Shown piece by piece: positions 10,688 to 24,660 of a DNA stretch of 64,000 nucleotides. Source of the stretch: Agromyces kandeliae (GTDB lineage: Bacteria > Actinomycetota > Actinomycetes > Actinomycetales > Microbacteriaceae); NCBI RefSeq assembly GCF_009674665.1, contig NZ_WKJD01000010.1:22258-86257 (forward strand), in the 5' to 3' direction. The first letter of the stretch is position 1. The number at the start of each line of letters is the position of its first letter. Under the pieces are notes generated by a model that saw nothing but the letters and a program-made list of their open reading frames with translations, ran no database searches and was not told the DNA's origin. Position numbers and translations under genes: made by a program.

Positions 10688-12763
10688 ATGCGAGGAGGGC
10701 TGATCGCCGCCGGCGGGGCGATCGCAGTGGCGCTCGCCATCGCCACCGTGGTGCCCGCGCCGCTCACCTCGGCCCACGTCGCCGAAGCCGCCCCGACGGA
10801 TCCGCCGGTTCCACCGCATGCGGCCGCACGGGAACCGCCCCCGAGGCCGGACGATCCCCCGTCGCACCCGGGCCCCCCGGACCTGCCCAGCACCGTGCTC
10901 GAGCAGATGGTCGCGACGACCTCGACCGACCGGTCCCTGGCAGCCGGAAGCCAGCAGGCACCGGCCGGCAATCGCGTCGTCGGCTCGGTCGTCGCCGCAG
11001 GCGGGGCGGACGTCCTCCCGGAACTCGCACTCTCGACGATCGCATCGGTGGCCGATCGCTCACCCGAACGATCCGCGGGACCGGACCGCTACCTCACGTC
11101 GGTCGCGCTCGCGCAGGACGTCCGACCGGGCGTGGGCGACGTCTGGGTCGCGACGGGCGAGGACTTCCCGGACGGCCTGGCGGCATCCGGCGTGGCCGGG
11201 GCCCGCGGCGGGCCCGTCCTGCTGACGCGGTCGACGAGACTGCCCGCGCCCGTCGCGGCGGAGTTGTCGCGCCTCGCTCCGGAGCGGGTGTGGGTCGTGG
11301 GCGGAACCCATGCCGTGTCGGAGGGCGTGCTCGACTCGATTCGCGGGGTCCTGCCGGATGCCGAGATCGCGCGTATCGCCGGTGCCGATCGCTTCGGCAC
11401 GGCGGCGGCGCTGGTCCGGCAGTTCTTCGGCGGCGCCCGCGCGGTGTTCGCCGCGACCGGGGCGAACTTCCCCGACGCCCTCGCCGCCGGACCCGCCGCC
11501 GCGGTGGAGGACGCTCCGACGTTGCTCGTGACGCGGACCACCGTGCCGTCCGCGAGCGAAGACCAGTTGCGTCGGCTCCACCCGGACGTGGTCCACATCG
11601 TCGGCGGGCCGGACGTGGTGGGCGACGAGGTCGCACTGCGCATCGCCGAGATCACCGGCGGACGTGTCGAGCGCGTTGCGGGAGACGATCGGTACGCCAC
11701 CGCGGCCGCGGTCGCCGAACGGTTCTTCACGGCGACCACGTCCAGCCTGCTGCTCGCGACGGGCGCGACCTTCCCGGACAGCATCGCCGCCGGCGCGCTG
11801 GCGGGCAGTCGGCGCAGCCCGCTGCTCCTGGTCACCCCGGGCGCCGCGCCGCGAGCGACCGTCGATGCGGCCCGACGCGTGTCGTGGTGGTTGCCCGACT
11901 CGGGACGGGTGCTCCGCTATACGCTGATCGCGCACCCGGACGACGAGTTCGCGGCGTGGTCGATCTCGGGCGTACGCGACCCCCGCAGGTACGACGTGCT
12001 GGTCGTGCTCACGACCGGCGAATCCACGCGGTTCTGCGACGGTGAGCCGGTCGACAATCCCTGGATGTCACTCCAGTACCTCCCGCAGCCGCAGCCGACC
12101 GGCGTGCCGTACTCGGACCGCTGCAAGCAGCACCGGATGGACAGTTGGCGCGAGTTCGTGCACGCCGCCGGGCTCGGACAGGTCGGCGAGGCGGAACGGC
12201 TCACGGCCGGCCCGATCACGTTCGACGGCCGCGAGGTGCCCGTCCCGCTCAGCCGCGACGAGGCCGGAACCGTGGTCGTGGCCGACGGGTTCGAGGTCGC
12301 CGTCGGATCGGACGCTGCCGTCGTGGCATTCGACATGGGCGCCCTCACGGTCGATGAGGTCCTGTGGGCCATGCAGGTCGCGCGGGGCCTCGCCGACCGG
12401 TTCCCCACCCGAGTGGAGGGCGACGTGATCGGTGCCGGCTTCTTCAACGACGGAGCGACCGGCTACGAGAACCTGCATGCGGACCATCGCGCAGTGCACG
12501 AACTGCTCGGCGGCACCGACCTCGGCATGCCCGGGAGCCAGTACGCCACGGTCGGGCATGCCCAGTCGGCCCGGACCTTCGGTTCGTCCGTCGCCGACTA
12601 CTGCGGGCACATGTGCCATCCGGCCGCCGAGCCTGCGTTCTCAACGGGAATGGGCGGGTTCCAGTTCGCCTACGGTTGGCTCGCCGACGGCTTCTGGCCG
12701 CCGGGTGACGTCGACTCCCCGTCCGGCTTCTCGCGCTACCAGTCGTTCGCGAAGTGGTACTGA
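10688..12763 (+). CDS. Secreted protein with three cell-wall-binding (CWB2) repeats and a PIG-L deacetylase domain
   Basis: A 691-residue exported fusion. A signal peptide (about 1-35) and a Pro-rich spacer precede three CWB2-type repeats, each beginning with a DRY/DRF motif (DRYLTSVALAQ, DRFGTAAALV, DRYATAAAVAE) and containing A-T-G-x-x-F-P-D-x-x-A-A. From about residue 412 a PIG-L/LmbE domain begins with the metal-binding motif HPDDE. PIG-L enzymes are zinc-dependent N-acetylglucosaminide deacetylases. The CWB2 repeats should tether it to the wall, so its substrate may be a wall glycan; that is inference. GGAGG 5 nt before ATG 10688 supports the start. Confidence 0.85.
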   Translation: MRGGLIAAGGAIAVALAIATVVPAPLTSAHVAEAAPTDPPVPPHAAAREPPPRPDDPPSHPGPPDLPSTVLEQMVATTSTDRSLAAGSQQAPAGNRVVGSVVAAGGADVLPELALSTIASVADRSPERSAGPDRYLTSVALAQDVRPGVGDVWVATGEDFPDGLAASGVAGARGGPVLLTRSTRLPAPVAAELSRLAPERVWVVGGTHAVSEGVLDSIRGVLPDAEIARIAGADRFGTAAALVRQFFGGARAVFAATGANFPDALAAGPAAAVEDAPTLLVTRTTVPSASEDQLRRLHPDVVHIVGGPDVVGDEVALRIAEITGGRVERVAGDDRYATAAAVAERFFTATTSSLLLATGATFPDSIAAGALAGSRRSPLLLVTPGAAPRATVDAARRVSWWLPDSGRVLRYTLIAHPDDEFAAWSISGVRDPRRYDVLVVLTTGESTRFCDGEPVDNPWMSLQYLPQPQPTGVPYSDRCKQHRMDSWREFVHAAGLGQVGEAERLTAGPITFDGREVPVPLSRDEAGTVVVADGFEVAVGSDAAVVAFDMGALTVDEVLWAMQVARGLADRFPTRVEGDVIGAGFFNDGATGYENLHADHRAVHELLGGTDLGMPGSQYATVGHAQSARTFGSSVADYCGHMCHPAAEPAFSTGMGGFQFAYGWLADGFWPPGDVDSPSGFSRYQSFAKWY

Positions 12764-12826: not shown

Positions 12827-13846
12827 CTACTGGTTCGAGAAGGCGGCGTCGAACGACGCGGTCGGGCGCGGCCAGATGAGCGAGCGCACGTACTCGAGCG
12901 CCTGCGGGCCGCCGTGCAGGCGGTCCATGCCGGCGTCCTCCCACTCGACCGAGATCGGGCCCGTGTAGCCGATCGCGTCGAGCGCGCGGAACGCGTCCTC
13001 CCACGGCACGTCGCCATGCCCGGTCGAGACGAAGTCCCAGCCGCGCCGCGGGTCGCCCCAGGGCAGGTGCGAGCCGAGGATGCCGGAGCGGCTGTTCGCC
13101 GTCCGGATCCGGGTGTCCTTGCAGTCGACGTGGTAGATCCGGTCCTGGAAGTCCCAGATGAAGCCGACCGGGTCGACGCCCTGCCACATCATGTGGCTCG
13201 GGTCCCAGTTGAAGCCGAACGCCGGGCGGCGGTCGATCGCCTCGAGCGTGCGCACGCTCGTCCAGTGGTCGTACGCGATCTCGGAGGGGTGCACCTCGTG
13301 CGCGAAGCGCACGCCCTCGTCGTCGAACACGTCGAGGATCGGGTTCCACCGGTTCGCGAAGTCCTCGTAGCCCGCGTCGATCACGTCGGCGGGCACGGGC
13401 GGGAACATCGCCACGTACTGCCAGATCTTCGAGCCCGTGAAGCCGACGACCGTGTCGACGCCGAGCTTGCGCGCGACCCGCGCGGTGCGCTTGAGGTCCT
13501 CCGCGGCCCGCTGCCGCACCCCCTCGGGGTCGCCGTCGCCCCACGTGTAGGGGCGCACGATCGCCTGGTGGCGGAAGTCGATCGGGTCGTCGCACACCGC
13601 CTGGCCGGTCAGGTGGTTCGAGATCGCGTAGACCTCGAGGCCGTAGCGCTTGAGGAGCTCCTGCTTCTCCTTCAGGTAGCCGGGCTCCTCGTCGGCGAGC
13701 TTCGTGTCGAGGTGGTCGCCGCCGATGCCGATCTCGAGGCCGTCGTAGCCCCACTCGGAGGCCAGGCGAGCGACCTCCTCGAACGGCAGGTCGGCCCACT
13801 GCCCGGTGAACAGGGTGACGGGGTGGGTGGCGGGAGTGTCGGTCAT
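12827..13846 (-). CDS. Sugar phosphate isomerase/epimerase (TIM barrel, AP endonuclease 2 fold)
   Basis: A 339-residue enzyme of the xylose-isomerase-like TIM-barrel superfamily. Metal-ligand motifs are visible: E in HEVHPSEIAYD, D in FNWDPSHMMWQG, the HVDCKD segment, and E in ISVEWED near the end. Such proteins are usually encoded beside Gfo/Idh/MocA dehydrogenases in sugar or cyclitol catabolism. It is the last gene of the minus-strand operon, 28 bp after the EboF-like gene. Its natural dehydrogenase partner may be the one at 22116-23315, on the far side of the ebo genes. The start has AGAGGAT about 6 nt upstream. The exact substrate is unknown. Confidence 0.85.
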   Translation of the reverse strand: MTDTPATHPVTLFTGQWADLPFEEVARLASEWGYDGLEIGIGGDHLDTKLADEEPGYLKEKQELLKRYGLEVYAISNHLTGQAVCDDPIDFRHQAIVRPYTWGDGDPEGVRQRAAEDLKRTARVARKLGVDTVVGFTGSKIWQYVAMFPPVPADVIDAGYEDFANRWNPILDVFDDEGVRFAHEVHPSEIAYDHWTSVRTLEAIDRRPAFGFNWDPSHMMWQGVDPVGFIWDFQDRIYHVDCKDTRIRTANSRSGILGSHLPWGDPRRGWDFVSTGHGDVPWEDAFRALDAIGYTGPISVEWEDAGMDRLHGGPQALEYVRSLIWPRPTASFDAAFSNQ

Positions 13847-13874
13847 GCTCGGATCCTCTCTCGGGGTTCGGTGG

Positions 13875-15311
13875 TCATCTGGGCGCGACACGGTCGTGCC
13901 CGGCGGGCTGCGGCATCCGCTCGCCCAGTAGTCCCTGGTGGCGGAGCACGAGGTCGCGGACCGCGGTCGCGTGGACGCGGTCGCCGGCGCCGTCGAGGAA
14001 GGCCGGGTCGGAGCTCAGCAGCAGGGGGGTGTCGGCCGCCGAGTCGGGCAGCCGGCCGTGCGTGCCGAGCACGCACGACGGGTCGAGCGGCACCGTGCTC
14101 ATCGCGTAGCGCAGCCCGAGCGCCTTCCGCGCGAGGTTGCCCGCCGCCTTGGCCTTCGCGAGGCGGTCGGCGGGGTCGAAGAACAGCTCGGCCGGGTCGT
14201 AGCCGGGCTTGCGGTGGATGTCGACGCCGCGCGCGTACTCGGGCGCGGCGGCGTCGTCGAGCCAGAAGTAGTAGGTGAACCATGCGCCCGGCGCGGCGAC
14301 CGCGACGAGCTCGCCCGACCGGGCGTGGTCGAGTCCGTACCGGGCCTGCGCTGCGCGGTCGAGGACCTCGTCGACGCCGTCGAGGCCCTCGAGGATCGCG
14401 GCCACGCGCGGCACGTCGGCGGGGTCGGAGACGTAGACGTGCGCGACCTGGTGGTCGGCGACGGCGAACGCGCGGGAGGTCCACGGATCGAGCTGCTCGC
14501 GGCCGTCCTGTACGTACACCTCGAGCAGTCCCTCGCGGCGGAGTGCGCGGTTGACGTCGACCGGGCGATCGGCGGCGGCGATGCCGTACTCGGCGAGCGC
14601 GACGACGGTGACGCCCTGCGCGTCGGCCTGGTCGAGCAGCGGGGCCATCGCCCGGTCGAGGTCGGCGGCGGCTCGGGTCGCCTCGGGGGCGTGGGGGCCG
14701 TGTCGTTGCAGGTCGTAGTCGAGGTGCGGCAGGTACGCCATGGTCAGCTCGGGCGCATCGGGCCGATCGAGGACCCGTCGGGTGGCGTCCACGATCCACC
14801 GCGTCGAGCGGATGCTCGCGGTCGGTCCCCAGTACTGGAAGAGGGGGAACTCGCCGAGCGCGTCGCGCAGCTCGTCGTGCAGGGCGGGCGGGCGGGCGTA
14901 GAAGTCGGGCGACTTGCGGCCGTCGGCGTGGTAGATCGGGCGGGGCGTGACGGTGAGGTCGGTGCTCGCGCCCATGGCGTACCACCAGCCCAGGTTCGCG
15001 CTGGTGTACGCGCCCCCGGTCCGATGCCGGGCGGTCTCCCAGAGCTTCTCGCCGGCGACGAGACGGTTGTGCTGCCGCCACAGCAGCACGTCGCCGAGCT
15101 CGCGGAAGTACCATCCGTTGCCGACGACGCCGTGCCCGGACGGCATCCGCCCGGTCAGCACGGACGACTGCACCGAGCAGGTCACGGCGGGCAGCACCGT
15201 GCCGAGCTCGGCACGCGAACCGGCGGACGCCATCCGCGACAGGCGCGGCATGGACCGCAACGCGTCGGCGGTCAGCCCGACCACGTCGAGCAGCAGCACC
15301 TTCGCGGTCAT
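13875..15311 (-). CDS. Alkaline-phosphatase-superfamily hydrolase, EboF-like (nucleotide pyrophosphatase/phosphodiesterase)
   Basis: A 478-residue protein of the nucleotide pyrophosphatase/phosphodiesterase type. Metal ligand Asp9 (LLLDVVGL) and the nucleophile loop PAVTCSVQSSVLTGRMPSGHG with probable nucleophile Thr44 are present, as are the later metal-binding segments (YLPHLDYDLQRHG and the DHQ/H region). No signal peptide is seen, so it should act in the cytoplasm on a phosphate ester or diester. Its ATG overlaps the stop of the upstream eboE-like gene by 4 bp. Members of this family are the EboF component of known ebo clusters; here it follows eboE exactly as expected. Confidence 0.85.
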   Translation of the reverse strand: MTAKVLLLDVVGLTADALRSMPRLSRMASAGSRAELGTVLPAVTCSVQSSVLTGRMPSGHGVVGNGWYFRELGDVLLWRQHNRLVAGEKLWETARHRTGGAYTSANLGWWYAMGASTDLTVTPRPIYHADGRKSPDFYARPPALHDELRDALGEFPLFQYWGPTASIRSTRWIVDATRRVLDRPDAPELTMAYLPHLDYDLQRHGPHAPEATRAAADLDRAMAPLLDQADAQGVTVVALAEYGIAAADRPVDVNRALRREGLLEVYVQDGREQLDPWTSRAFAVADHQVAHVYVSDPADVPRVAAILEGLDGVDEVLDRAAQARYGLDHARSGELVAVAAPGAWFTYYFWLDDAAAPEYARGVDIHRKPGYDPAELFFDPADRLAKAKAAGNLARKALGLRYAMSTVPLDPSCVLGTHGRLPDSAADTPLLLSSDPAFLDGAGDRVHATAVRDLVLRHQGLLGERMPQPAGHDRVAPR

Positions 15312-16444
15312 GCCGGCTGCCCCTGCCGCTCGGCCAGGCGGGCCGACGCCCACCGCAGCTCGCCGGCGATGCCGTCCACCAGGTCGAGCGGATGCTCGGC
15401 ATCGACGCCCGGGAGCACCGACCACGTGTACGTCTCGACGTCGACGTGGAGCTGGTCCACCGGCTGCACTGCGACGACCGCGTCGAGAGCGGCCTCGAGC
15501 ACCTCGGTGGTCGCCCGCAGCGGCGGCTCCGGCTCGACGTGCAGCGGCACGTGGAAGTGCACCCGCCACGGCGCCGACGCGGGCAGCACCTCCAGCGCCT
15601 CGGGGAGGTCGTCGACGCGGATCGGACCGTTCGCCGCCCGCTCGCGCACCTGGTGAAGGTAGCGGTCCTCGGCGTACCCGGCGACCGCGGCGCGTGCGGC
15701 CGGGGCGCCCGGCCGATCCACGTGCAGCGCCGCGGACGCCTGCACCTTCACGACCCGGATGCCCGCCGACGCGATCCGCTCCACCTCGGTGCGCGGGTCG
15801 GCGAACGAGACCGCGAGGTGGCACGTGTCCAGGCAGATCCCGACGTGCTCGAGGTCGATCCGCTGGCGGTGCGCGTCCAGCCACGCGACCGTGTCGGCCA
15901 CGTCGTCGAGCACGCAGCCCGGCTCCGGCTCGATGGCGAGGCGGATGACGCGTCCGGTCTCCGCACGGATGGCGCGGAGCTCGGCGCCGAGCGACACCAG
16001 GGCGGCCGTGGCTGCGCGGTCGGCCGCGGCATCCCACCCCTCGCGCCACCCCAGCGGCAGCGTGGAGATGCTGCCCTCGCCGCCCGGGGGCAGCAGTTCG
16101 GCGAGCACTCGCGCCGCGTCGATCGTGTAGTCCAGGCGGGCCGGATCCGTCCAGTCGGGTGAGTAGACCCCGAGCTTCACGACGTCGGCGTGGAACGCCT
16201 CGTACGGGAAGGCGTTCAGGGTGCGCACCTCCAGCCCCTCCTCCTCGAGCGCGGCGCGCAGGCGGGCCAGCGCGGCGGTCTCGTTCGCGAGCCGCGCCGC
16301 GAGCGGGGCGGGCAGCCACAGGCCGACCCCGAGGAGGTCGAGGCCGGCGGCGCGGCGGATCGGACCCGCCGCGGCGTGCAGCTGCGCGATCACCCCGTCG
16401 AGGTCCTCGGCCGGGTGCACGTTGGTGCAGTAGGAGAGGTGCAT
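15308..16444 (-). CDS. eboE: EboE-like metabolite traffic protein (xylose-isomerase-like TIM barrel)
   Basis: A 378-residue protein starting MHLSYCTNVHPAEDLDGV, a characteristic EboE N-terminus. The TIM-barrel core has candidate metal ligands in LAIEPEPGCVLDD, VGICLDTCHLAV and HVDVETYTWSVLP near the C-terminus. EboE is found only in ebo clusters and is implicated in handling or export of a membrane-associated metabolite; the chemical reaction is not established. It lies 2 bp after the TatD-like gene and overlaps the EboF-like gene by 4 bp, so it is translated as part of the operon. Confidence 0.85.
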   Translation of the reverse strand: MHLSYCTNVHPAEDLDGVIAQLHAAAGPIRRAAGLDLLGVGLWLPAPLAARLANETAALARLRAALEEEGLEVRTLNAFPYEAFHADVVKLGVYSPDWTDPARLDYTIDAARVLAELLPPGGEGSISTLPLGWREGWDAAADRAATAALVSLGAELRAIRAETGRVIRLAIEPEPGCVLDDVADTVAWLDAHRQRIDLEHVGICLDTCHLAVSFADPRTEVERIASAGIRVVKVQASAALHVDRPGAPAARAAVAGYAEDRYLHQVRERAANGPIRVDDLPEALEVLPASAPWRVHFHVPLHVEPEPPLRATTEVLEAALDAVVAVQPVDQLHVDVETYTWSVLPGVDAEHPLDLVDGIAGELRWASARLAERQGQPA

Positions 16445-16446
16445 CC

Positions 16447-17340
16447 TCAGTCCGCCCCCGCCCCGGCGGGCACCGCGGCGGCACCGCGCAGGATCGAGTT
16501 GCCCTCGAAGAGCTCGGCCTCCCCGCCGAGCTCGAATCCGGGCAGGGGGGTCACGTCGAGCCGGCCGCTCTGCCCGTAGAACGCGACCGGATTGCCCCAG
16601 AGCACGGTGTCGACCTCGGCGTCGGTGAACCCCGCGTCGAGCATGGCCCGACCCGTCTTCGCCGTGAGCAACGGGTCGGAGCGACCCCAGTCCGCGGCGG
16701 AGTTCACGAGCATCCGCTCGGTTCCGAGCCGCTGGAGGATCGCGACCATGCGACCCGGGTCCATCTTGGTGTCGGGGTAGATCGAGAAGCCCATCCAGCA
16801 GCCGCGCTCGGCGACCAGGTCGACCGTGACCTCGTTCAGGTGGTCGAGCACGACGAGCTCGGGGGCGATGCCCGAGTTCGCGACCACGTCGAGGGTGCGC
16901 TGCGTGCCGTGCTTCTTGTCGCGGTGCGGCGTGTGCACGACGACGGGCAGGGCGTGGCGTATCGCGAGGTCGAGGTGCGCCTCGAGGACCTCGTCCTCCT
17001 CGGGCGTCATCGAGTCGTAGCCGGTCTCGCCGACCGCCACGACCGACTCGCGCCGGAGGTACCGGTCGAGTTCCGGCATGACCTCGCGGCAGCGCGGGTC
17101 GTTCGCCTCCTTCGGGTTCAGTGCGATGGCCGCGTGGTGGCGGATGCCGAACTGCGACGCGCGGAACCGCTCCCACCCCGTGATCGCATCGAAGTAGTCG
17201 AGGTAGCTCGAGACGCCCGTGCGCGGCTGGCCGAGCCAGAACGCCGGTTCGACGACCGCGCGCACGCCCGCGGCGTACATCGCCTCGTAGTCGTCGGTCG
17301 TCCTGGAGGTCATGTGGATGTGCGGGTCGAAGATGCGCAT
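16447..17340 (-). CDS. eboB: TatD-like metal-dependent hydrolase, EboB-like
   Basis: A 297-residue amidohydrolase-fold protein. The N-terminal metal motif is FDPHIHMTSR (HxH), followed by a Glu in VAVGETGYD, HTPHRDK, DHLN and the late Asp in NSAADWGRSDPL. TatD family members are metal-dependent hydrolases (some are DNases), but this branch belongs to ebo clusters (EboB), where the substrate is unknown. Position between EboA-like and EboE-like proteins is the main evidence for the name. AGGA sits 7 nt before the ATG at 17340, and the gene starts 1 bp after the upstream stop. Confidence 0.82.
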   Translation of the reverse strand: MRIFDPHIHMTSRTTDDYEAMYAAGVRAVVEPAFWLGQPRTGVSSYLDYFDAITGWERFRASQFGIRHHAAIALNPKEANDPRCREVMPELDRYLRRESVVAVGETGYDSMTPEEDEVLEAHLDLAIRHALPVVVHTPHRDKKHGTQRTLDVVANSGIAPELVVLDHLNEVTVDLVAERGCWMGFSIYPDTKMDPGRMVAILQRLGTERMLVNSAADWGRSDPLLTAKTGRAMLDAGFTDAEVDTVLWGNPVAFYGQSGRLDVTPLPGFELGGEAELFEGNSILRGAAAVPAGAGAD

Positions 17341-17341
17341 G

Positions 17342-17866
17342 TCAGCGTCCTGTCTCGAGGGATGCGTCGGCGGCCGCAGGGAGCAGCGCGCGGAGGTCGT
17401 CGGGGATGGCGCGACCGGCGGCCCCGCGTTCCTCCGCGAGGTCCGCGGCCATGCGGGCCAGCTCGTCGTCGGCCCGCTCGTCGAGCCGGGCGACGCCGGC
17501 GAGCGGCACCCCCATGAACACGAGCTTCACGACCCCGTGCCGCCAGTCGTGGTCGCCGAGGTGCCGACCGGCGAACGGGCCCATCGCGGCCGCGACGAGT
17601 CGCGGGTCGTTCGATCGGAGCGCGTCGCGCACCAGTTCGACGCCGACCGCGCGCACGAGGTCGGGTGCGGGCTGCTCCGCCACGATCCGGTCGAGCACGC
17701 CGAGCACGAGGATCCGCTCGTCGGTGTCGCCGCTCCGGTAGCGCGTCTCGAGCTCGTCGGCGACGACGATCGCCGGGGCGCCGGCCCGCGACAGCGTCGC
17801 CCCCGCACCCCCGCGCATCCCGGGCGCTCCGGCGCGGGGTCCCATCGATTCGTCCATGCGGTTCAC
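17342..17866 (-). CDS. eboA: EboA-domain protein
   Basis: A 174-residue Ala-rich, helical protein matching the short actinobacterial EboA-domain type by content and context: HEAT-like helices (RILVLGVLDRIVAEQ, RLVAAAMGPFAGRHLGDHDW, KLVFMGVPLAGVARLDERADDEL). Biochemical function is unknown. The start is GTG 17866: it makes a 4-bp GTGA overlap with the upstream isomerase stop and has GGAGGGG 5 nt upstream, whereas ATG 17857 would be 14 nt away. Its position in the middle of UbiA-isomerase-TatD-EboE genes is the decisive evidence. Confidence 0.75.
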   Translation of the reverse strand: MNRMDESMGPRAGAPGMRGGAGATLSRAGAPAIVVADELETRYRSGDTDERILVLGVLDRIVAEQPAPDLVRAVGVELVRDALRSNDPRLVAAAMGPFAGRHLGDHDWRHGVVKLVFMGVPLAGVARLDERADDELARMAADLAEERGAAGRAIPDDLRALLPAAADASLETGR

Positions 17867-18729
17867 CCGATCCCCTCCATGACCTCGATCAGCCGTGCCA
17901 TGCTCTCGCGCGCCAGGCGCGGCGCCGCGTGCGAGTGGCGCGGCAGCTCGACGGCGGCGACCCCGCCGTACCCGAGCTCGGCGAGCGTGCGGAACGCGAG
18001 CTCGAGGTCGAGCGCTCCCGTTCCGAGTTCGAGGTGCTCGTGCGCGTGCGGCAGCATGTCGTCGACCTGCACGTTCACGAGCAGGTCGCCCGCGGCGCGG
18101 AGCGCGGCTTCGACCCCGCCGGGCTCGACCACCACGCAGTGGCCGAGGTCGACCGTGATGCCGAACTCCGGCGGATCGCCGAGCTCGGCCCGCAGCCGCA
18201 GCGCGTCGGCGACGGTCTCGACGAGCATGCCCGGCTCGGGCTCGAAGCCGAGCCGCACGCCGTGGTCCCGGGCTGCGACGACGAGCCGGGACATCCGCTC
18301 GACGAGCCGACGCCAGGCGCCCGCCGGGCCGACGCCGTCGGGCAGCACGCCCGACCAGAGCGAGACGCAGTCGGCGCCGAGGACCTCGGCGATCTCGATC
18401 GCGCGCACGAGGAAGGCCACGCGCTGCTCGGCCTCGACGTCGTCGTCGAGCAGGTTCGGGCGGTGCTTGCGGAAGGGGTCGAGCACGTAGCGCCCGCCGG
18501 TCTCGACGACCACCCGGAGGCCGCGCTCCCGGAGGTCGTCGCGGAGGAGCCGCGCGTCGTCGCGCCATCCGGCCGCGAACGGGTCGAGATGCGGATGCCC
18601 CAGGGTCAGCGCGACCGCGCCGTACCCGGTGCGCTGCACCACGTCGAGCGCCGCGCCGAGCGGGTGGTCGGCGAGCCCGTTCGTTCCGTAGCCCAGCACG
18701 GGCCGGACGAGCGTCGTGGACCCGGTCAC
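17863..18729 (-). CDS. TIM-barrel sugar phosphate isomerase/epimerase of the ebo operon
   Basis: A 288-residue xylose-isomerase-like TIM barrel. Candidate metal ligands are in LGFEPEPGMLVE, FGITVDLGHCVVVEPGG, VNVQVDDMLPHAHEHLELGTGAL and AAVELPRHSH. It starts with GTG overlapping the stop of the UbiA gene by 4 bp (GTGA), and its own stop overlaps the eboA start. It is thus a third TIM-barrel protein in one operon, distinct from EboE and from the 12827-13846 protein. In cyclitol pathways, relatives act as dehydratases or isomerases on keto-cyclitols; the reaction here is unknown. Confidence 0.82.
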   Translation of the reverse strand: MTGSTTLVRPVLGYGTNGLADHPLGAALDVVQRTGYGAVALTLGHPHLDPFAAGWRDDARLLRDDLRERGLRVVVETGGRYVLDPFRKHRPNLLDDDVEAEQRVAFLVRAIEIAEVLGADCVSLWSGVLPDGVGPAGAWRRLVERMSRLVVAARDHGVRLGFEPEPGMLVETVADALRLRAELGDPPEFGITVDLGHCVVVEPGGVEAALRAAGDLLVNVQVDDMLPHAHEHLELGTGALDLELAFRTLAELGYGGVAAVELPRHSHAAPRLARESMARLIEVMEGIG

Positions 18730-19592
18730 GTGATCTCACGCCCCTTCGCGCCGCGCCGCGCGAGCAGGATGCCGAGCGCGTCGACCGCCAGGAGCACGAC
18801 CGCGTCGATCGGGCGACCGGCGCGGGCCGTGAGCGCCGCCTGCAGCGGCACCATCGCGAGGATCCCCCGGCGCGTGGCGTCGCGGACGACGGGACCGGTC
18901 GGCGTGCCCACGGCGCCGGCCTGTACACGGAGGGTCGGGAGCGCGAACCGGGCGGCCGCGACCCACGACACGACGCCCGCGGCATCCGCCCTCGGCCGGA
19001 CGGCGGCGGCGGCGGACCCGGCGGTGACGACCGCGGCGGCCGCCGCCACCGCGGCACTCGTGCCGTGCACCTCGCCGCGCGCGAGCGCCGTGACGCTCGC
19101 GGTGTGCCCGGCCATCACGAGCGCGGGGCGCGCGGCGACGCGAGCGCCGTCGGAGCCCGCGCCGAGCAGCACGTCGAGCCCGCGGCAGGCGCCCATGACG
19201 AACGGGCCGAGCACGTTCCGCTTGGCCGAGACATCGTACGCCCAGATGGAGCCGGCGAGCGGGAGGGCGACGGCGAGCGAGGACCGGCCGCCGGTGAGAC
19301 CGGCGACGGCGATCCCCGCCGCGGTCAGCGCGCCGGCCGTGGCGAGGGCCGCGCGCCGCGTCACCCGGCCGGAGGGGATGGGCCGCTCGGGGCGCTCGAC
19401 GCGGTCGAGTTCCGCGTCGGCCGCGTCGTTCAGCGCCATCCCGCCCCAGTAGAGCAGCACCGAGGCGACGGGCAGTCCGAGACGGGGAAGGATGCCGCGA
19501 CGCCCGGTCGCGGCCATGCCCGCGGTCGCGTCGCCGAGCACCGTCAGGCCGGCGGGCGCGCGGACCAGCTGCAGGAACGCGGGTGCGTCCAC
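18726..19592 (-). CDS. eboC: UbiA-family prenyltransferase, EboC-like
   Basis: A 288-residue integral membrane prenyltransferase. The first catalytic motif N55-D-x-x-D59-x-x-x-D63 is followed by the RPERPIPSGRV loop, both diagnostic of UbiA enzymes. The second motif region is Y119-D-V-S-A-K124 in place of the classical DxxxD. Seven to nine hydrophobic helices are visible. Such enzymes transfer a polyprenyl chain to an acceptor at the cytoplasmic membrane face. A prenyl diphosphate synthase and a cyclitol-phosphate-forming enzyme are encoded beside it, so the acceptor may be a cyclitol. Start is GTG 19592, 1 bp after the upstream stop. Confidence 0.88.
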   Translation of the reverse strand: MDAPAFLQLVRAPAGLTVLGDATAGMAATGRRGILPRLGLPVASVLLYWGGMALNDAADAELDRVERPERPIPSGRVTRRAALATAGALTAAGIAVAGLTGGRSSLAVALPLAGSIWAYDVSAKRNVLGPFVMGACRGLDVLLGAGSDGARVAARPALVMAGHTASVTALARGEVHGTSAAVAAAAAVVTAGSAAAAVRPRADAAGVVSWVAAARFALPTLRVQAGAVGTPTGPVVRDATRRGILAMVPLQAALTARAGRPIDAVVLLAVDALGILLARRGAKGREIT

Positions 19593-19593
19593 G

Positions 19594-20775
19594 TCACGCC
19601 ACCTGCGCCGCGGACCTCCGGACCGCCGTCCGGAGCGCCCACGAGACCAGCTCGTCGGCCTGACGGGCGAACGCGTGCTCGTCGCTCCCCCACGGGTCCT
19701 TGAAGAAGTAGCCGAGCTCGGCGACCGGGCCGGTGACGCCGGCGCCGTCGGCGAGCGAGAGCAGTCGCGCGAGGTCGATCACGAGCGGCGCGGCGAGCGT
19801 CGAGTCGTAGGCGCTCCAGGTGGTCTGCAGCGTGATCCGGGTGTCGAGGAAGCCCTCGGCGTGCACGTGGTCCCACGCCGTCTTCAGGTCGCCGAGGTCG
19901 GGGACGTTGTCGATGTGCAGCGGGGTCACGACGTCGTCGCCGAGCAGGTCGTTCAGTCCGCGGTTCTTCGAGACGAGCTTCGACTGCACCGCGGCGGGGT
20001 CGGCGAGCGTCGCGCCGTCGCCGCCGCCGAGGAGGTTGGCACCGGCCCAGGAGAGCACGCGCATGCCGCGCGACGCGAACATGGGCGCGAGCACCGTGCG
20101 GAGCAGCGTCTCACCGGTCTTGCCGTCCTGGCCGGCGATCGGCACGCCGGAGTCCGCCGCGAGGTCGCGGAGCGCCGGGATGCCGAGCGAGAGGGACGGC
20201 GTGAAGCACGCGTAGGGCGCGCCGGCGCCGGCGACGGCGGCGATCGCCGAGAGCGTGCTCGAGGGTAGCGACTCGGAGGCAGGGTCGTCGAGCGCCGCGT
20301 CGAGCGCGGCGCGGTCGTGGAACTCGGGTCGGTCGGCGGGGAGCGGTTCGGTCGAGGCGACGTCGATGACCACGACCCGGGCGAGGCCGTGGCGTTCCCG
20401 GAAGTCGCGGATGTCGGCGGCGCGGAGCTCGATCTCCTCGCGCTGGGTGCCGCGCGGGGTGCGGGCGAGCAGGCGGATGTCGGCATCGATGGCGTCGAGC
20501 CGGGCGCCGACGGCGTCGACGATCCGCGCGGGCAGCATTCCGCCCGCGGCGAGCGAGCGTGCGCGCTCGACGAGCGGGGTGTCGTCGACGTCGTGGCCTC
20601 CGACCACCAGGTCGCCGAACGCCGTGAGCGCGACGCCGTCGAACTCGGGCCCCGCGGTCGTCAGCCCCACCGGTGCCACGATCCCGTCTGCGAGGGCGGC
20701 GAGGCCCACGGTCGCGGTGGTCGCCACGCTCCCTCGAGCGCCCACGAACCAGATCCCGGTCCGTCCTTCGTTCAT
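19594..20775 (-). CDS. Inositol-3-phosphate synthase-like sugar-phosphate cyclase
   Basis: A 393-residue enzyme with an N-terminal NAD-binding loop (WFVGARGSVATTA, residues 9-21). It has the conserved synthase segment with PIAGQDGKTGETLLRTVLAP, then SWAGANLLGGGDGATL and SKLVSKNRGLNDLL, and the C-terminal GYFFKDPWGSDEHAF. Family enzymes convert glucose-6-phosphate to 1L-myo-inositol-1-phosphate. The N-terminus differs from the housekeeping mycobacterial Ino1 type, so this is probably a second, pathway-specific copy. It is the first gene of the ebo-like operon, where other ebo clusters carry EboD, a different sugar-phosphate cyclase. A promoter with a 17-bp spacer lies upstream. Confidence 0.85.
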   Translation of the reverse strand: MNEGRTGIWFVGARGSVATTATVGLAALADGIVAPVGLTTAGPEFDGVALTAFGDLVVGGHDVDDTPLVERARSLAAGGMLPARIVDAVGARLDAIDADIRLLARTPRGTQREEIELRAADIRDFRERHGLARVVVIDVASTEPLPADRPEFHDRAALDAALDDPASESLPSSTLSAIAAVAGAGAPYACFTPSLSLGIPALRDLAADSGVPIAGQDGKTGETLLRTVLAPMFASRGMRVLSWAGANLLGGGDGATLADPAAVQSKLVSKNRGLNDLLGDDVVTPLHIDNVPDLGDLKTAWDHVHAEGFLDTRITLQTTWSAYDSTLAAPLVIDLARLLSLADGAGVTGPVAELGYFFKDPWGSDEHAFARQADELVSWALRTAVRRSAAQVA

Positions 20776-20829
20776 CGTCGAACTCCATTCCTGTGCACCG
20801 TTGCGCGTGGGCGCCGTGGCCCGATCTCG

Positions 20830-20858
20830 AAGCTAGCCGAGCTTGAATCCTCGGTCAA
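20830..20858 (-). promoter_or_regulatory. Promoter of the ebo-like operon
   Basis: On the minus strand TTGACC (20858-20853) and TAGCTT (20835-20830) are separated by 17 bp inside a locally AT-rich stretch, about 55 bp before the first gene of the operon. Confidence 0.55.
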
Positions 20859-20907
20859 TCAGAAGTTGCATTGCTTTGGCGATAACTCGCTCGTGTTCAG
20901 TTGAAAG

Positions 20908-22068
20908 TCAGGCCGAGCGGCCGGGCACGCTCCGGGCGAGCACCCCGAGGTACGCCTCGAGCTCCCCGGGAAGCCCGGCGCCGTCGAGCGCCGCCACCGC
21001 ATCGGCCGCCCGACGGACGATGCAGGCGCGATGCCGTTCGAGCGCGCCGCTGTCGCGCATGACGGTGCGGACCCGCTCGACGCCCGCGTCGGACAGGTCC
21101 GCCCGACCGACGTCGCGGTCGAGGCTCGCCCGCTGCTGCTCCGACGAGCCGGCGTACGCGAGCTGGAGCAGGAACGTGCGCTTGCCCGACCGGATGTCGG
21201 AACTCGTCGACTTGCCGGTCCGCTCCGGGTCGCCGAACACCGCGAGCTCGTCGTCCATGAACTGGTACGCGACCCCGAGGTGCCGACCGAACTCCTCGAG
21301 CGCGGCGAGCGCCGAGGCATCCGCTCGCCCGGACGCCAGGGCGCCGAGACGGAGCGGCAGGGCGACGCTGTAGCCGGAGGTCTTGAGCTCCGCCGTGCGG
21401 GCGGGACGAGCCGCTTCGGGCGAGAGCCCCTCCCCGCGGACGTCCATGAGCTCGCCCGAGACCGCCCGCCCGAGGGCGGTCACGACCTCGAGCACGAGCG
21501 AGACCCGGATCCCGTCCTGCACCGGAACGCGGGCGAGGACTCCGATGCACTCCCCGATCGCGAGGTCGCCGGCGAGGACGGCGGCCGACGCCGCCCGGTG
21601 CTCGGCCGTCGATGCCGCGCCGATCGATCGCAGCGTCTCGCGCGTGACGCCGAACAGGTTCGGGCGACCGTGACGGCGGTCGTCGCCATCGATCAGGTCG
21701 TCGTGGACGCAGAGCCCGAGGTGCAGCAGCTGGACTGCCGCGGACAGCCCGTCGCAGGCCTTCGCGTCCGCGCCGCCCATGCCGAGGTAGGCCGCAGCGG
21801 CCAGCCTCGAACGGACGTACTTCCCCCCGCGCTGCGCGGCGAGCCCGTCGATGAGTTCCAGCAGCTCCGGCTGGTCGTCGGCGGATGCGGCGAGGGCGGC
21901 CCAGACGGTCGCCGTCGCGGCCGGCGCACGCGCGACGGCCGTCTCGACGCGACCGGCGAGCCCGGCCGCACCGTGCTCGGCCTCGTGCGCTCCACCGATC
22001 GCCCCATCGACCCCCTCGGCTCGCCGACCGGCCCGTTCGCCGAGCCGCACGGATCCGGTGGACGACAT
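20908..22068 (-). CDS. Polyprenyl diphosphate synthase (trans-isoprenyl synthase)
   Basis: A 386-residue prenyl chain-elongating enzyme that condenses isopentenyl diphosphate onto an allylic primer. The first Asp-rich motif is D123-D-L-I-D127-G-D-D and the second region is D272-D-E-L-A-V-F-G-D280, the DDxxx form common in actinobacterial GGPP synthases. The GGKYVRSRL segment (81-89) binds diphosphate. The first 60 residues are Ala/Glu-rich and atypical. It probably supplies the donor for the UbiA enzyme encoded 1.3 kb downstream. It lies 47 bp after the dehydrogenase gene and 132 bp before the operon's own promoter. Product chain length cannot be read from the sequence. Confidence 0.87.
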   Translation of the reverse strand: MSSTGSVRLGERAGRRAEGVDGAIGGAHEAEHGAAGLAGRVETAVARAPAATATVWAALAASADDQPELLELIDGLAAQRGGKYVRSRLAAAAYLGMGGADAKACDGLSAAVQLLHLGLCVHDDLIDGDDRRHGRPNLFGVTRETLRSIGAASTAEHRAASAAVLAGDLAIGECIGVLARVPVQDGIRVSLVLEVVTALGRAVSGELMDVRGEGLSPEAARPARTAELKTSGYSVALPLRLGALASGRADASALAALEEFGRHLGVAYQFMDDELAVFGDPERTGKSTSSDIRSGKRTFLLQLAYAGSSEQQRASLDRDVGRADLSDAGVERVRTVMRDSGALERHRACIVRRAADAVAALDGAGLPGELEAYLGVLARSVPGRSA

Positions 22069-22115: not shown

Positions 22116-23315
22116 TCAGCCGGCCACCGGGGCCGGCTCGGCGACCCCCACCCACGCGCCCGTGGATGCGGCGCTCTCCTCGACCGCGTCGAGCACCCGC
22201 TGCACGTGGAGGCCGTCCGCGAAGGACGGACTCGGGTCGGCGCCCGTGGCGATCGCCTCGACGAAGTCCCTCGCCTGGTTCGCGAAGCCGTGCTCGTAGC
22301 CGAGGAGGTGGCCTGCCGGCCACCATGCCGAGACCCACGGGTGCTCGGGCTCGGTGACGATGATCGACGTGAATCCCTGCTCGCTCGCAGGCGACGTCGC
22401 GTCGTAGTACTCGATGCGGTTGAGGTGCTCGAGGTCGAATGCGATCGCGCCACGCGATCCCGACACCTCCACGCGCAGGGCGTTCTTGCGGCCGGTCGCC
22501 ATGCGCGATGCCTCGAACGAACCCAGCGCGCCCGACGCGAAGCGCCCGTGGAAGAACGCGACGTCGTCGACGGTGACCTCCCCGACGCCGGTGGCGGAGG
22601 CGGTCGAGCCGCCCGAGATGCCTCCGGACGAGGAGCCGGCGATCGGCCGCTGTCGGACGAAGGTCTCGAGCAGCCCCGACACCTCGGCGACCCGGACCCC
22701 GGTGAGGTACTCGGCCATGTCGACCGCGTGCGCACCGATGTCACCGAGCGCACCCGATCCGGCCCGGTCCTTCTGCAACCGCCAGGTCATGGGCGACGCA
22801 GGATCGACGAGCCAGTCCTGCAGGTACGAGGCGCGCACGTGACGGATCTCGCCGATGCGCCCCTCGGCGATGAGGTGCCGCGCGAAGGCGGTCGCCGGGA
22901 GGCGCCGGTAGGTGAACCCCACCATCGAACGGATGCCGCGCGCCGCAGCGGCCTCGGCCGCCCGGGTCATCGCCTCGGCCTCGGCCGACGAATTCGCGAG
23001 CGGCTTCTCGCAGAGCACGTGCTTGCCCGCCTCGAGGGCGGCGATGGCGATCTCCGCGTGGCTGTCTCCCGGGGTGACGATGTCGACGACGTCGACGTCA
23101 TCCCGCGTGACGACGTCGCGCCAGTCCGATGCGGACTCGCGCCAGCCCCACTTCTCGGCGGAGGCGGCGGCCCGATCCGGATCTCGGCCGACGAGGACGT
23201 CCATCGTCGGCTCGACCGTGAGGTCGAAGAACCTCGGGGCGACGCGCCATCCCTGCGAGTGGGCGGCCCCCATGAAACCGTTGCCCACCATCGCGACGCG
23301 GAGTCGTTCACGCAT
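22116..23315 (-). CDS. Gfo/Idh/MocA-family NAD(P)-dependent oxidoreductase
   Basis: A 399-residue dehydrogenase with an N-terminal Rossmann fold (VAMVGNGFMGAAHSQG, residues 7-22), the conserved CEKPLA motif with its catalytic Lys, and GDIGAHAVDMAEYL carrying the conserved His/Asp. Members oxidise sugars or cyclitols such as myo-inositol. A Ser/Gly-rich insertion (SSSGGISGGSTASATG) interrupts the C-terminal domain. It is encoded 72 bp after the ABC binding protein, across a strong terminator, so it probably belongs to the same catabolic locus. The TIM-barrel protein at 12827-13846 is the kind of partner usually encoded with it. Confidence 0.88.
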   Translation of the reverse strand: MRERLRVAMVGNGFMGAAHSQGWRVAPRFFDLTVEPTMDVLVGRDPDRAAASAEKWGWRESASDWRDVVTRDDVDVVDIVTPGDSHAEIAIAALEAGKHVLCEKPLANSSAEAEAMTRAAEAAAARGIRSMVGFTYRRLPATAFARHLIAEGRIGEIRHVRASYLQDWLVDPASPMTWRLQKDRAGSGALGDIGAHAVDMAEYLTGVRVAEVSGLLETFVRQRPIAGSSSGGISGGSTASATGVGEVTVDDVAFFHGRFASGALGSFEASRMATGRKNALRVEVSGSRGAIAFDLEHLNRIEYYDATSPASEQGFTSIIVTEPEHPWVSAWWPAGHLLGYEHGFANQARDFVEAIATGADPSPSFADGLHVQRVLDAVEESAASTGAWVGVAEPAPVAG

Positions 23316-23387: not shown

Positions 23388-24434
23388 TCAGGACTCGAAC
23401 GCGAACTGGATGTAGTCGTCCACGTTGTCCGAGGTCACGACCGGTGCGTCGAGCACGATCCGGTTGGCGACGCTCGGCGTGTACAGGTCGCTCATCGTCT
23501 TGCCCTGCGCGATCAGGCGGGCCAGCGCGATGCCGTCGGCCGCCTGCGTCGACGGGTAGATGACCGTCGCCTCGAGCACCGAGTCGCCCGACTGGATGGC
23601 GCGCATCGCGTTCGCGCTGCCCGCACCGCCGACCATGAAGAACTCGTCGCGCCCGGCGGCGTCGATGGCCGCGAGGACGCCGACGCCCTGGTCGTCGTCG
23701 TGGTTCCAGATCGCGTCGATCTCCGGCGCGGCCGAGAGCAGCTGCGAGGTCACGGCCTCGCCGCCCTGGATGGTGAAGTCCGCGGCGACGCGGTTGGTCA
23801 CCTCGAGACCGCAGTCGGACAGGGCGTCGGCGAAGCCCGCCGAGCGGTCCTGGGTCAGCGGCAGCGAGTCGATGCCGGCGATCTCGGCGATGACCGCGTC
23901 GTCCTGCCCTTCGAGCCGTTCGCAGATGTACGTGCCGGCGCTGACGCCCATGCCGTAGTTGTCGCCCAGGATCGTCGCACGTGCGGCGAAGGGGCTCGAG
24001 AACTCGCGGTCGACGTTGATGACCGGGATGCCGGCCTCCATCGCCGCGGTCGCCGCCTCGGTGAGCGCGGCGCCGTCGGTGGGCAGCAGCACGATCGCGT
24101 CGACGCCGTCGTTGACGAACGTCTCGACCTGGCTGATCTGGAGGTTGGCGTCGTTCGTCCCCTCCGCGACGCGGAGCTCGACGTCGGGGTAGCTGTCGGC
24201 GGCGGCGATGGCCGCCGAGTTGATCGCTCCGAGCCAGCCGTGGTCGGCCGCGGGGCCCGAGAAGCCGATGACGACCGTGTCGCCGGCCTCGGCGTTCTCC
24301 TCGGCGGAGTTCTGGTTCTCCGTGATGTTCGACTCGGATCCGCCCGCCGTGCAGCCGGCCAGCAGGCCGGCGACCGCGAGGGATGCGCCCGCCATGACCA
24401 GCATGCGGGCTCGTGAAGTGCGGGTGACACTCAT
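23388..24434 (-). CDS. Sugar ABC transporter substrate-binding lipoprotein (RbsB type)
   Basis: A 348-residue periplasmic-binding-fold lipoprotein. The lipobox LAGC places the lipidated Cys at residue 28, followed by an acidic spacer. The domain resembles ribose/galactose-type binding proteins (VVIGFSGPAADHGWLGAINSAA, DAIVLLPTDGAAL, VINVDREF, WNHDDDQGVGVLAAI). It delivers a monosaccharide or cyclitol to the importer encoded divergently by the ATPase and permease genes. GGAGAGGA upstream of ATG 24434 is a good ribosome-binding site. A terminator follows its stop. The sugar is not identifiable from sequence alone. Confidence 0.9.
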   Translation of the reverse strand: MSVTRTSRARMLVMAGASLAVAGLLAGCTAGGSESNITENQNSAEENAEAGDTVVIGFSGPAADHGWLGAINSAAIAAADSYPDVELRVAEGTNDANLQISQVETFVNDGVDAIVLLPTDGAALTEAATAAMEAGIPVINVDREFSSPFAARATILGDNYGMGVSAGTYICERLEGQDDAVIAEIAGIDSLPLTQDRSAGFADALSDCGLEVTNRVAADFTIQGGEAVTSQLLSAAPEIDAIWNHDDDQGVGVLAAIDAAGRDEFFMVGGAGSANAMRAIQSGDSVLEATVIYPSTQAADGIALARLIAQGKTMSDLYTPSVANRIVLDAPVVTSDNVDDYIQFAFES

Positions 24435-24565
24435 TCGTGTAGTCCTCTCCTTGGATGTGACGCAGCACCGCCAGATGGACCTCGTATCCATCCGGGTGCC
24501 ACCACACCCAACGGAGTCCACGCTGACGTTTCGTGAGCGTAGCAGAAGGTAGCCGTATCTGCGCA

Positions 24566-24591
24566 ACTTATGTTTGTGTCGCGTTATAAGT
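24566..24591. promoter_or_regulatory. Candidate ROK-repressor operator between divergent transporter genes
   Basis: ACTTAT (24566-24571) and ATAAGT (24586-24591) form an inverted repeat around a 14-bp spacer, in an AT-rich island of the 260-bp divergent gap. The nearby ROK gene is the obvious regulator. Confidence 0.4.
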
Positions 24592-24660
24592 GGCCAGCCA
24601 CTCATCCCGACGCCCGGCCGCGCGCGTCGGAGGATTCTCGACCGGATTCGGCGAAACCAC

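What the first reader, a model, noticed from the sequence alone, without database searches (positions are those of the whole stretch)
12827..22068. Variant ebo operon with a built-in cyclitol synthase and prenyl donor synthase
Nine consecutive minus-strand genes encode polyprenyl diphosphate synthase, inositol-phosphate-synthase-like enzyme, UbiA prenyltransferase, TIM-barrel isomerase, EboA-like protein, TatD-like EboB, EboE, EboF-like phosphodiesterase and another TIM barrel. From the cyclase gene to the EboF gene, neighbours overlap by 4 bp or are 1-2 bp apart. ebo clusters are known from cyanobacteria, algal plastids and other bacteria, and are linked to export or handling of secondary metabolites, but their product is unknown. 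The gene set predicts a prenylated cyclitol or sugar-like lipid made at the membrane.
Basis: partly seen in the sequence, partly recalled or inferred. Interest (0 to 1): 0.85.

Follow-up and report, generated by a model that had tools for sequence, protein, structure and literature searches.

The report
Ebo operon with swapped ring-forming enzyme
This Agromyces-like bacterium carries an actinobacterial form of the widespread but unexplained ebo operon, in which the usual ring-forming enzyme EboD is missing and an unrelated inositol-phosphate-synthase-type enzyme is present instead, so the unknown ebo product is likely a sugar-derived ring that is predicted to carry a prenyl lipid tail.

Summary
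The gene row is real, with the stated coordinates and spacings. Seven genes form a fixed block: MIPS-like cyclase, EboC, TIM barrel, EboA, EboB, EboE, EboF. Seeded by EboE alone, the whole block occurs at 17 of 20 loci in 396 Actinomycetota genomes; one other locus carries EboD instead. The cyclase keeps the MIPS active-site residues, lies apart from Ino1 and is this genome's only MIPS-family gene. No EboD relative was found in the fetched stretches of MIPS-type loci. My paper searches showed no statement that MIPS stands in for EboD.

Corrections: the ninth gene (TIM barrel, 12827-13846) is not an ebo gene. With the upstream dehydrogenase it belongs to a sugar operon found with or without ebo. 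The prenyl synthase is an optional extra. EboF has changed metal-ligand positions, so 'phosphodiesterase' is doubtful. Genes for keto-sugar chemistry lie near 30 of 50 block loci.

Best reading: the enzymes likely build a prenylated cyclitol at the membrane. Product, substrate and export role are untested.

The parts
19594..20775 (-). MIPS-like cyclase (393 aa), first gene of the constant block
   Evidence: PF07994 151.1 and PF01658 103.9 bits; best solved relative A. fulgidus MIPS 215.8 bits; active-site residues kept; only PF01658 gene of the genome
18726..19592 (-). EboC-type UbiA prenyltransferase
   Evidence: NF045897 300.5 bits (cut-off 260), NF035940 EboC 157.4 (cut-off 250); first Asp motif N55 D56 D59 D63 in 53 of 53 rows
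17863..18729 (-). TIM1, xylose-isomerase-like TIM barrel; on one frame with EboA in 18 of 48 loci that have both
   Evidence: PF01261 139.8 bits; fusion count
17342..17866 (-). EboA, helical-repeat protein
   Evidence: NF035938 131.6 bits, cut-off 50; model pLDDT 90.0, all helical
16447..17340 (-). EboB, TatD-like metal hydrolase
   Evidence: PF01026 52.5 bits, cut-off 27; H7, H9, E105, H136, H167, D217 in 50 of 50 rows
15308..16444 (-). EboE, ketose-epimerase-like TIM barrel
13875..15311 (-). EboF, alkaline-phosphatase-superfamily protein with changed metal-ligand positions
   Evidence: PF01663 202.9 bits; T44, Q202, E241, Y242 in 50 of 50 rows
20908..22068 (-). Polyprenyl diphosphate synthase (PPS), accessory
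   Evidence: PF00348 121.8 bits; near 17 of 50 block loci
12827..13846 (-). TIM2: not an ebo gene; tail of the sugar operon
   Evidence: 521.9 bits to 2zds, 121.3 to 2-hydroxy-3-keto-glucal hydratase 8ro4; in 126 of 199 family genomes
22116..23315 (-). Gfo/Idh/MocA dehydrogenase of the sugar operon
   Evidence: PF01408, PF22725; NF052479 levoglucosan dehydrogenase 373.4 bits, below its cut-off of 650
23388..24605 (-). Sugar-binding protein of the sugar operon; ABC ATPase, permease and ROK regulator genes follow on the plus strand to 28584
   Evidence: PF13407 133.9; PF00005 179.6; PF02653 121.2; PF00480 199.9 bits

Best explanation
This is the actinobacterial form of the ebo operon, in which EboD is missing and a MIPS-type cyclase gene is present instead, and its enzymes likely build a prenylated cyclitol lipid at the cytoplasmic membrane. 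Shown: the block, its order, the family memberships, the kept active-site residues and the absence of an EboD relative from the fetched stretches. Inferred steps: (1) the MIPS-like enzyme would close a hexose 6-phosphate into a cyclitol phosphate with NAD; (2) TIM1, which EboA (to which it is fused in other genomes) would hold, and EboE, with its ketose-epimerase fold, would epimerise or dehydrate that ring; (3) EboC, whose best solved relative puts a prenyl chain on a glycerol hydroxyl, would prenylate it in the membrane with a chain that the synthase next door may supply; (4) EboB and perhaps EboF would trim the product. EboD (a sugar phosphate cyclase) and MIPS are unrelated families that both make rings from sugar phosphates, so finding one for the other in otherwise like operons supports a cyclitol as the common ebo intermediate. 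The use of the product, perhaps membrane traffic of small metabolites as in Nostoc, is carried over from published work.
For: EboE-seeded sample: complete MIPS-type block at 17 of 20 loci, EboD at one. Active-site residues D225, N255, K274, K278, K306, D332, K367 (A. fulgidus numbering) kept in every row that covers them, 52 of 53 rows for the last five. The ebo cyclases form their own group, split from Ino1 at 100/100; G326, G348 and G402 also hold a separate Ino1. No EboD relative in the fetched stretches. EboC's best solved relative is digeranylgeranylglyceryl phosphate synthase (33.3 bits). TIM1-EboA fusion in 18 of 48. PPS near 17 of 50. The isoprenoid-cyclitol idea was already put forward for EboD-type operons (PMC5133447).
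Against: No chemistry was tested. Ubi-297, an EboC, farnesylates 8-hydroxyquinoline-2-carboxylic acid and other aromatics; cyclitols were not among the substrates named in the parts I read, and its R145A variant stays active (PMC9235831). EboF's metal ligands are changed. G193 (L142) keeps EboC, A, B and F without MIPS, TIM1 or EboE, and L167 and L184 lack MIPS nearby. No lipid-linked scytonemin intermediate was seen in Nostoc (PMC6282210). The recurrent keto-sugar neighbours are not explained by this model.
Confidence: 0.5

Rival explanations
1. The ring made by the MIPS-like enzyme would be dehydrated by the TIM barrels to an aromatic polyol that EboC would prenylate on carbon, giving a quinol-like lipid and not a prenyl ether of a cyclitol.
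For: Ubi-297 accepts quinoline acids and 1,3-dihydroxynaphthalene (PMC9235831). TIM1 and TIM2 are weakly like inosose dehydratase (TIGR04379, 20.8 and 39.3 bits, far below the cut-off of 290).
Against: EboC's best solved relative prenylates an alcohol. Phenols and catechols gave no product with Ubi-297. No oxidoreductase lies within the constant block.
Confidence: 0.15
2. The ebo block works with keto-sugar or glycoside breakdown: its TIM barrels and EboB would process oxidised sugars, and EboC would make a membrane cofactor for secreted sugar dehydrogenases.
For: A sugar-oxidation module or a secreted GSDH-PKD-CBM6 protein lies near 30 of 50 block loci, in Streptomyces-type loci with ThuA and 3-keto-disaccharide hydrolase domains. 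In L178 all are collinear. EboE-family proteins also occur alone in L138-L141.
Against: 20 of 50 loci show neither module in the stretch held (some are short). Of the six family genomes with the whole block, all have TIM2 but only G000 and G194 have it beside the block. MIPS and UbiA enzymes are biosynthetic by family.
Confidence: 0.12
3. The MIPS-like gene would simply supply inositol for the whole cell and shares the operon by accident.
For: It is the only PF01658 gene of this genome.
Against: Its place before EboC is constant across Actinomycetota; other genomes hold a separate Ino1 as well; S. coelicolor has a separate inoA (SCO3899; passage of PMC7581861); 151 of 199 family genomes have no PF01658 gene; it scores 40.3 bits against a cut-off of 638 in the mycothiol Ino1 model.
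Confidence: 0.08

Closest known systems
Canonical ebo operon eboABCDEF (PMC5133447; PMC6282210)
   Same: EboA, EboB, EboC-type UbiA, EboE and EboF encoded together; UbiA plus a sugar-phosphate ring-forming enzyme
   Different: EboD missing, MIPS-like cyclase instead; extra TIM barrel (TIM1) joined or next to EboA; different gene order; EboC is of the SCO3242 subfamily
SCO3242/SCO3243 pair listed in the CDA gene cluster of Streptomyces coelicolor (PMC3610822, passages only)
   Same: A transferase after which NCBIfam NF045897 is named, and a myo-inositol phosphate synthase, side by side in number
   Different: I did not fetch or compare the S. coelicolor sequences; no function for the pair is given in the passages seen
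Ubi-297, EboC of marine Flavobacteria (PMC9235831)
   Same: EboC-type UbiA enzyme in an ebo cluster, active with farnesyl diphosphate
   Different: The panel described was aromatic acceptors, and the product in the cell was not identified
Archaeoglobus MIPS (1u1i) and digeranylgeranylglyceryl phosphate synthase (6m31)
   Same: Best solved relatives of the cyclase (215.8 bits) and of EboC (33.3 bits)
   Different: In archaea they belong to separate pathways (recalled); the EboC match is weak

Membership tests
ebo operon (six-gene form ABCDEF) | EboE present | tested here: met
   NF035939 426.4 bits, cut-off 250
ebo operon (six-gene form ABCDEF) | EboA present | tested here: met
   NF035938 EboA domain 131.6 bits, cut-off 50; the full-length EboA family model NF035937 is not reached (46, cut-off 320)
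ebo operon (six-gene form ABCDEF) | EboC present | tested here: inconclusive
   UbiA family met (PF01040 63.6, cut-off 34.2); NF035940 EboC 157.4 below its cut-off of 250; NF045897 SCO3242 300.5 above its cut-off of 260
ebo operon (six-gene form ABCDEF) | EboB (TatD-like) and EboF (PF01663) present | tested here: met
   PF01026 52.5 (cut-off 27), PF01663 202.9 (cut-off 23); no EboB- or EboF-specific model appeared
ebo operon (six-gene form ABCDEF) | EboD (sugar phosphate cyclase) present | tested here: not met
   Not among the genes; the EboD of L170 used as query has no relative at E 1e-5 in the fetched stretches of MIPS-type loci. EboD elsewhere in these genomes was not tested. Hence a variant, not the six-gene form
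SCO3242 family prenyltransferases (NF045897) | Score over curated cut-off | tested here: met
   300.5 bits, cut-off 260
MIPS family | Both MIPS domains | tested here: met
   PF07994 151.1 (cut-off 25), PF01658 103.9 (cut-off 27)
MIPS family | Active-site residues of the archaeal enzyme | tested here: met
   D225, N255, K274, K278, K306, D310, D332, K367 all kept in the window's protein
MIPS family | Makes inositol 1-phosphate from glucose 6-phosphate | not testable with these tools
   Needs an enzyme assay
Mycothiol-type Ino1 (TIGR03450) | Score over curated cut-off | tested here: not met
   40.3 bits, cut-off 638
Two-metal phosphodiesterases of the alkaline phosphatase superfamily (for EboF) | Metal ligands as in phosphonoacetate hydrolase | tested here: not met
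   H, D and H of the aligned hydrolase are Q202, E241 and Y242 in 50 of 50 rows; T44 and D198 kept. The alignment is weak (best stretch 23.9 bits) and was read by eye; ligand roles are recalled
HEAT/armadillo repeat proteins (for EboA) | Fold match clearly above other helical folds | tested here: inconclusive

The most novel reading that the evidence does not exclude
EboD and the MIPS-like cyclase are interchangeable entrances to one pathway, so that ebo operons in bacteria and algal plastids alike make an isoprenyl ether of an inositol-type cyclitol, starting from glucose 6-phosphate rather than sedoheptulose 7-phosphate: a new class of bacterial membrane lipid with an archaeal-style linkage that serves as a shuttle for secondary metabolites.
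Probability: 0.2. Interest if true: 0.87.

Novelty: new variant of a known kind. Interest (0 to 1): 0.62.

Why it matters
The ebo product was unknown when the operon was named in 2016, although it occurs in several bacterial phyla and in algal plastids (PMC5133447) and its genes are needed for scytonemin export in Nostoc (PMC6282210). Two unrelated ring-forming enzyme families occurring one for the other in otherwise like operons is indirect evidence that a cyclitol lies at the heart of the pathway. Because MIPS chemistry is known, it narrows the substrate list and makes the question testable in easy laboratory actinobacteria by stable-isotope lipidomics. It also gives a rule for annotation: in Actinomycetota the ebo cluster should be sought through MIPS plus SCO3242-type UbiA, not through EboD.

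Tried and rejected
Nine-gene operon as one unit: rejected, because TIM2 and the dehydrogenase form a separate sugar operon that is split by the block here and in L007 and L011, and by a longer insert in L178.

MIPS as the cell's ordinary inositol supply: disfavoured.

Four further Microbacteriaceae genomes with EboE looked at first like EboD-type ebo clusters; in the stretches fetched they hold only a stand-alone EboE relative, in L138 beside 2-oxoacid dehydrogenase genes (L138-L141).

Planctomycetes as a second ebo lineage with MIPS: 47 of the 80 loci are planctomycete for the most part; my profiles found a UbiA gene near MIPS in three of the 47 (L055, L084, L086), confirmed by Pfam. Of seven planctomycete genomes checked, one has EboE over cut-off, about 870 kb from its MIPS gene and without other recognised ebo genes beside it. 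No full second lineage was shown.

EboA fold search gave only generic helical-repeat matches; no function is read from it. EboE has no solved relative by sequence at E 0.1; by fold it is a ketose-epimerase-like barrel.

Paper searches for a MIPS-ebo link showed none in the listings or in the passages I opened; most listed papers were not opened, and subscription papers and bioRxiv preprints are not held, so this is no proof of absence. (aristeromycin cyclase; keto-glucal hydratase) were used for background.

Rows dropped before counts: one search left out ten Ino1-type rows with matches under 250 residues; the tree left out L143, L145, L146, L147 (duplicates) and L047 (cut by its contig end) and thinned 47 planctomycete rows to 20; the conservation counts left out those five, L008 and L184, and for EboE also L138-L141. 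The GSDH profile was built from seven of the 14 loci it then counted, and my line for counting (800 bits) was set after seeing the scores; L177 (59 bits) and L179 (246 bits) fall below it.


Full report
What is there. The window lies in a 3.78-Mb, 22-contig genome, 99.92% complete. Its nearest relatives are Agromyces: the cyclase is 93% identical to those of A. bracchium and A. luteolus. On the minus strand, 22068 to 13875, eight genes follow each other: polyprenyl synthase (PPS), MIPS-like cyclase, EboC-type UbiA enzyme, TIM barrel 1 (TIM1), EboA, EboB, EboE and EboF. A ninth, TIM barrel 2 (TIM2), follows 28 bp later.

How constant is it? I searched for the EboE model, not for the cyclase, in 396 Actinomycetota genomes drawn evenly: 19 have a match, 18 over the cut-off. 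These give 20 loci, since one genome has two. The order MIPS-EboC-TIM1-EboA-EboB-EboE-EboF on one strand is complete at 17 of the 20 (window and L144 included). The three others: L170 has an EboD (PF01761 116.7 and PF24621 104.5 bits) with EboB, E, C and F and no MIPS beside it. L167 is a copy without MIPS next door in a genome (G326) whose other copy, L169, has it. L184 is decayed: the EboE matches skip residues 97-292, EboC is split over frames, and MIPS and TIM1 are not found nearby; its genome has two PF01658 genes elsewhere, one Ino1-type and one on a long, unsure branch (L190). In 199 genomes of the window's own family, EboE occurs in 10: six have the MIPS-type block and four only a stand-alone EboE relative in the stretch fetched. 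The SCO3242-type EboC is over cut-off in seven: the six and G193, whose locus L142 keeps EboC, A, B and F but has no EboE, TIM1 or MIPS; G193 has no PF01658 gene anywhere. A separate search seeded by the cyclase gave 80 loci (the best 80 of 160), of which 31 carry the block beyond the cyclase (L007-L036, L053); 30 of the 31 are complete and L008 is cut by its contig end. That second set is biased towards MIPS by design.

The cyclase. Its best solved relative is the MIPS of Archaeoglobus fulgidus, 215.8 bits; the mycobacterial Ino1 scores 49.2 and the five-membered-cyclitol-phosphate synthase 33.3. The residues aligned with D225 and N255 of the archaeal enzyme are kept in 53 of 53 actinobacterial ebo rows, and those aligned with K274, K278, K306, D332 and K367 in 52 of 53, the other row having a gap there (presumably L047, whose contig ends inside the gene); four rows are duplicates. 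In planctomycete-type rows all seven are kept in 47 of 47. Roles of K278, K367 and N255 come from passages of PMC11348189. A tree of 86 rows puts all 48 ebo cyclases, plus one stray Streptomyces copy (L039), in one group (support 93/94), apart from Ino1-type proteins at 100/100. The program warned of long branches, so the relation to the planctomycete and archaeal rows is not firm. Genomes G326, G348 and G402 carry one gene of each type, the window's genome only this one, and 151 of 199 family genomes none. This reads as a dedicated enzyme, not general inositol supply.

What is not part of it. TIM2 and the Gfo/Idh/MocA dehydrogenase lie 3 to 58 bp apart in 13 of the 16 loci listed; in L007 and L011 they are 8.3 kb apart with the block in between, as in the window, and in L178 14.5 kb apart. 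TIM2 orthologues (E at most 1e-80) occur in 126 of 199 family genomes and EboE in 10. All six family genomes with the whole block have TIM2, but only two of them (G000, G194) beside the block. TIM2 is 521.9 bits from 2zds and 121.3 from 2-hydroxy-3-keto-glucal hydratase. So the block sits inside a sugar-uptake and sugar-oxidation operon and may be co-transcribed with it. PPS is found near 17 of 50 block loci, window included, and on the opposite strand in L183.

A recurrent neighbourhood. Among 50 distinct block loci, the dehydrogenase and/or TIM2 gene of the sugar module is near 18 (L008 shows only the dehydrogenase), a secreted GSDH-PKD-CBM6 protein near 14, and either near 30. In Streptomyces-type loci that protein carries or is followed by ThuA and 3-keto-disaccharide hydrolase domains. 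I then checked 13 genomes, 12 of them chosen because the protein lies by their block, plus the window's own: they hold 2 to 8 GSDH matches each, so the gene is not so abundant that one near the block is expected by chance; in the window's own genome neither of the two is near the block. Related genomes are not independent, so I give no p-value. I do not know what this means. It is the main evidence for a link to keto-sugar chemistry and counts against a pure lipid reading.

Literature. The ebo operon, its six genes and the isoprenoid-cyclitol proposal are from PMC5133447 (abstract and sections 3.2, 3.4 and 3.7 read). Export of the scytonemin monomer fails in ebo mutants of Nostoc (PMC6282210, passages and one section). 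Ubi-297, an EboC, farnesylates quinoline acids in vitro (PMC9235831, parts 1-2 of 4). SCO3242 and SCO3243 (myo-inositol phosphate synthase) are listed among CDA cluster genes of S. coelicolor (PMC3610822, passages); I did not compare their sequences. The word 'inositol' does not occur in the main text of PMC5133447, PMC6282210 or PMC9235831.

Verdict. The new point is the constant MIPS-for-EboD difference in Actinomycetota, which I did not find stated in the papers searched.

Noticed in passing
L178:1918-19501 (unnamed Actinomycetota genome G402): Sugar-binding protein, dehydrogenase, whole ebo block, PPS, secreted GSDH-PKD-CBM6 protein, ThuA protein and TIM2 all lie on one strand in one row.
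   Followed up: partly
L142:9214-13191 (unnamed Microbacteriaceae genome G193): A reduced cluster of EboC, EboA, EboB and EboF without MIPS, TIM1 or EboE, beside the sugar module and a GSDH gene; the genome has no PF01658 gene. Its acceptor might be imported.
   Followed up: partly
L169, L171-L176, L009, L012, L028: A further xylose-isomerase-like TIM barrel lies near the block; in L169 and L172 it follows EboF and its N-terminus looks like a twin-arginine signal by eye.
   Followed up: no
L138, L139, L140, L141: Stand-alone EboE-family genes over the EboE cut-off in four Microbacteriaceae genomes, in L138 beside 2-oxoacid dehydrogenase and ketopantoate-reductase-like genes.
   Followed up: no
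L055, L084, L086: Planctomycete rows of MIPS, TIM barrel and UbiA enzyme without other recognised ebo genes.
   Followed up: partly
window 10688-12763 (+): Convergent gene ending 63 bp from TIM2: cell-wall-binding CWB2 repeats followed by a stretch with AHPDDE, which recalls LmbE/PIG-L deacetylases (recalled, no family match).
   Followed up: no
window 20908-22068 (-): The polyprenyl synthase has an N-terminal extension of about 75 residues before its Pfam match and its best NCBIfam match, below cut-off, is the family 2 encapsulin cargo polyprenyl transferase (147.2 bits, cut-off 450). No bulky residue stands 4 or 5 places before the first Asp motif, which suggests C20 or longer (recalled rule).
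   Followed up: no
Streptomyces-type loci L169, L171-L173, L175: Genes that look by eye like formyl-CoA transferase and an acyl-CoA synthetase lie a few kb beyond EboF on the other strand; no family search was run on them.
   Followed up: no
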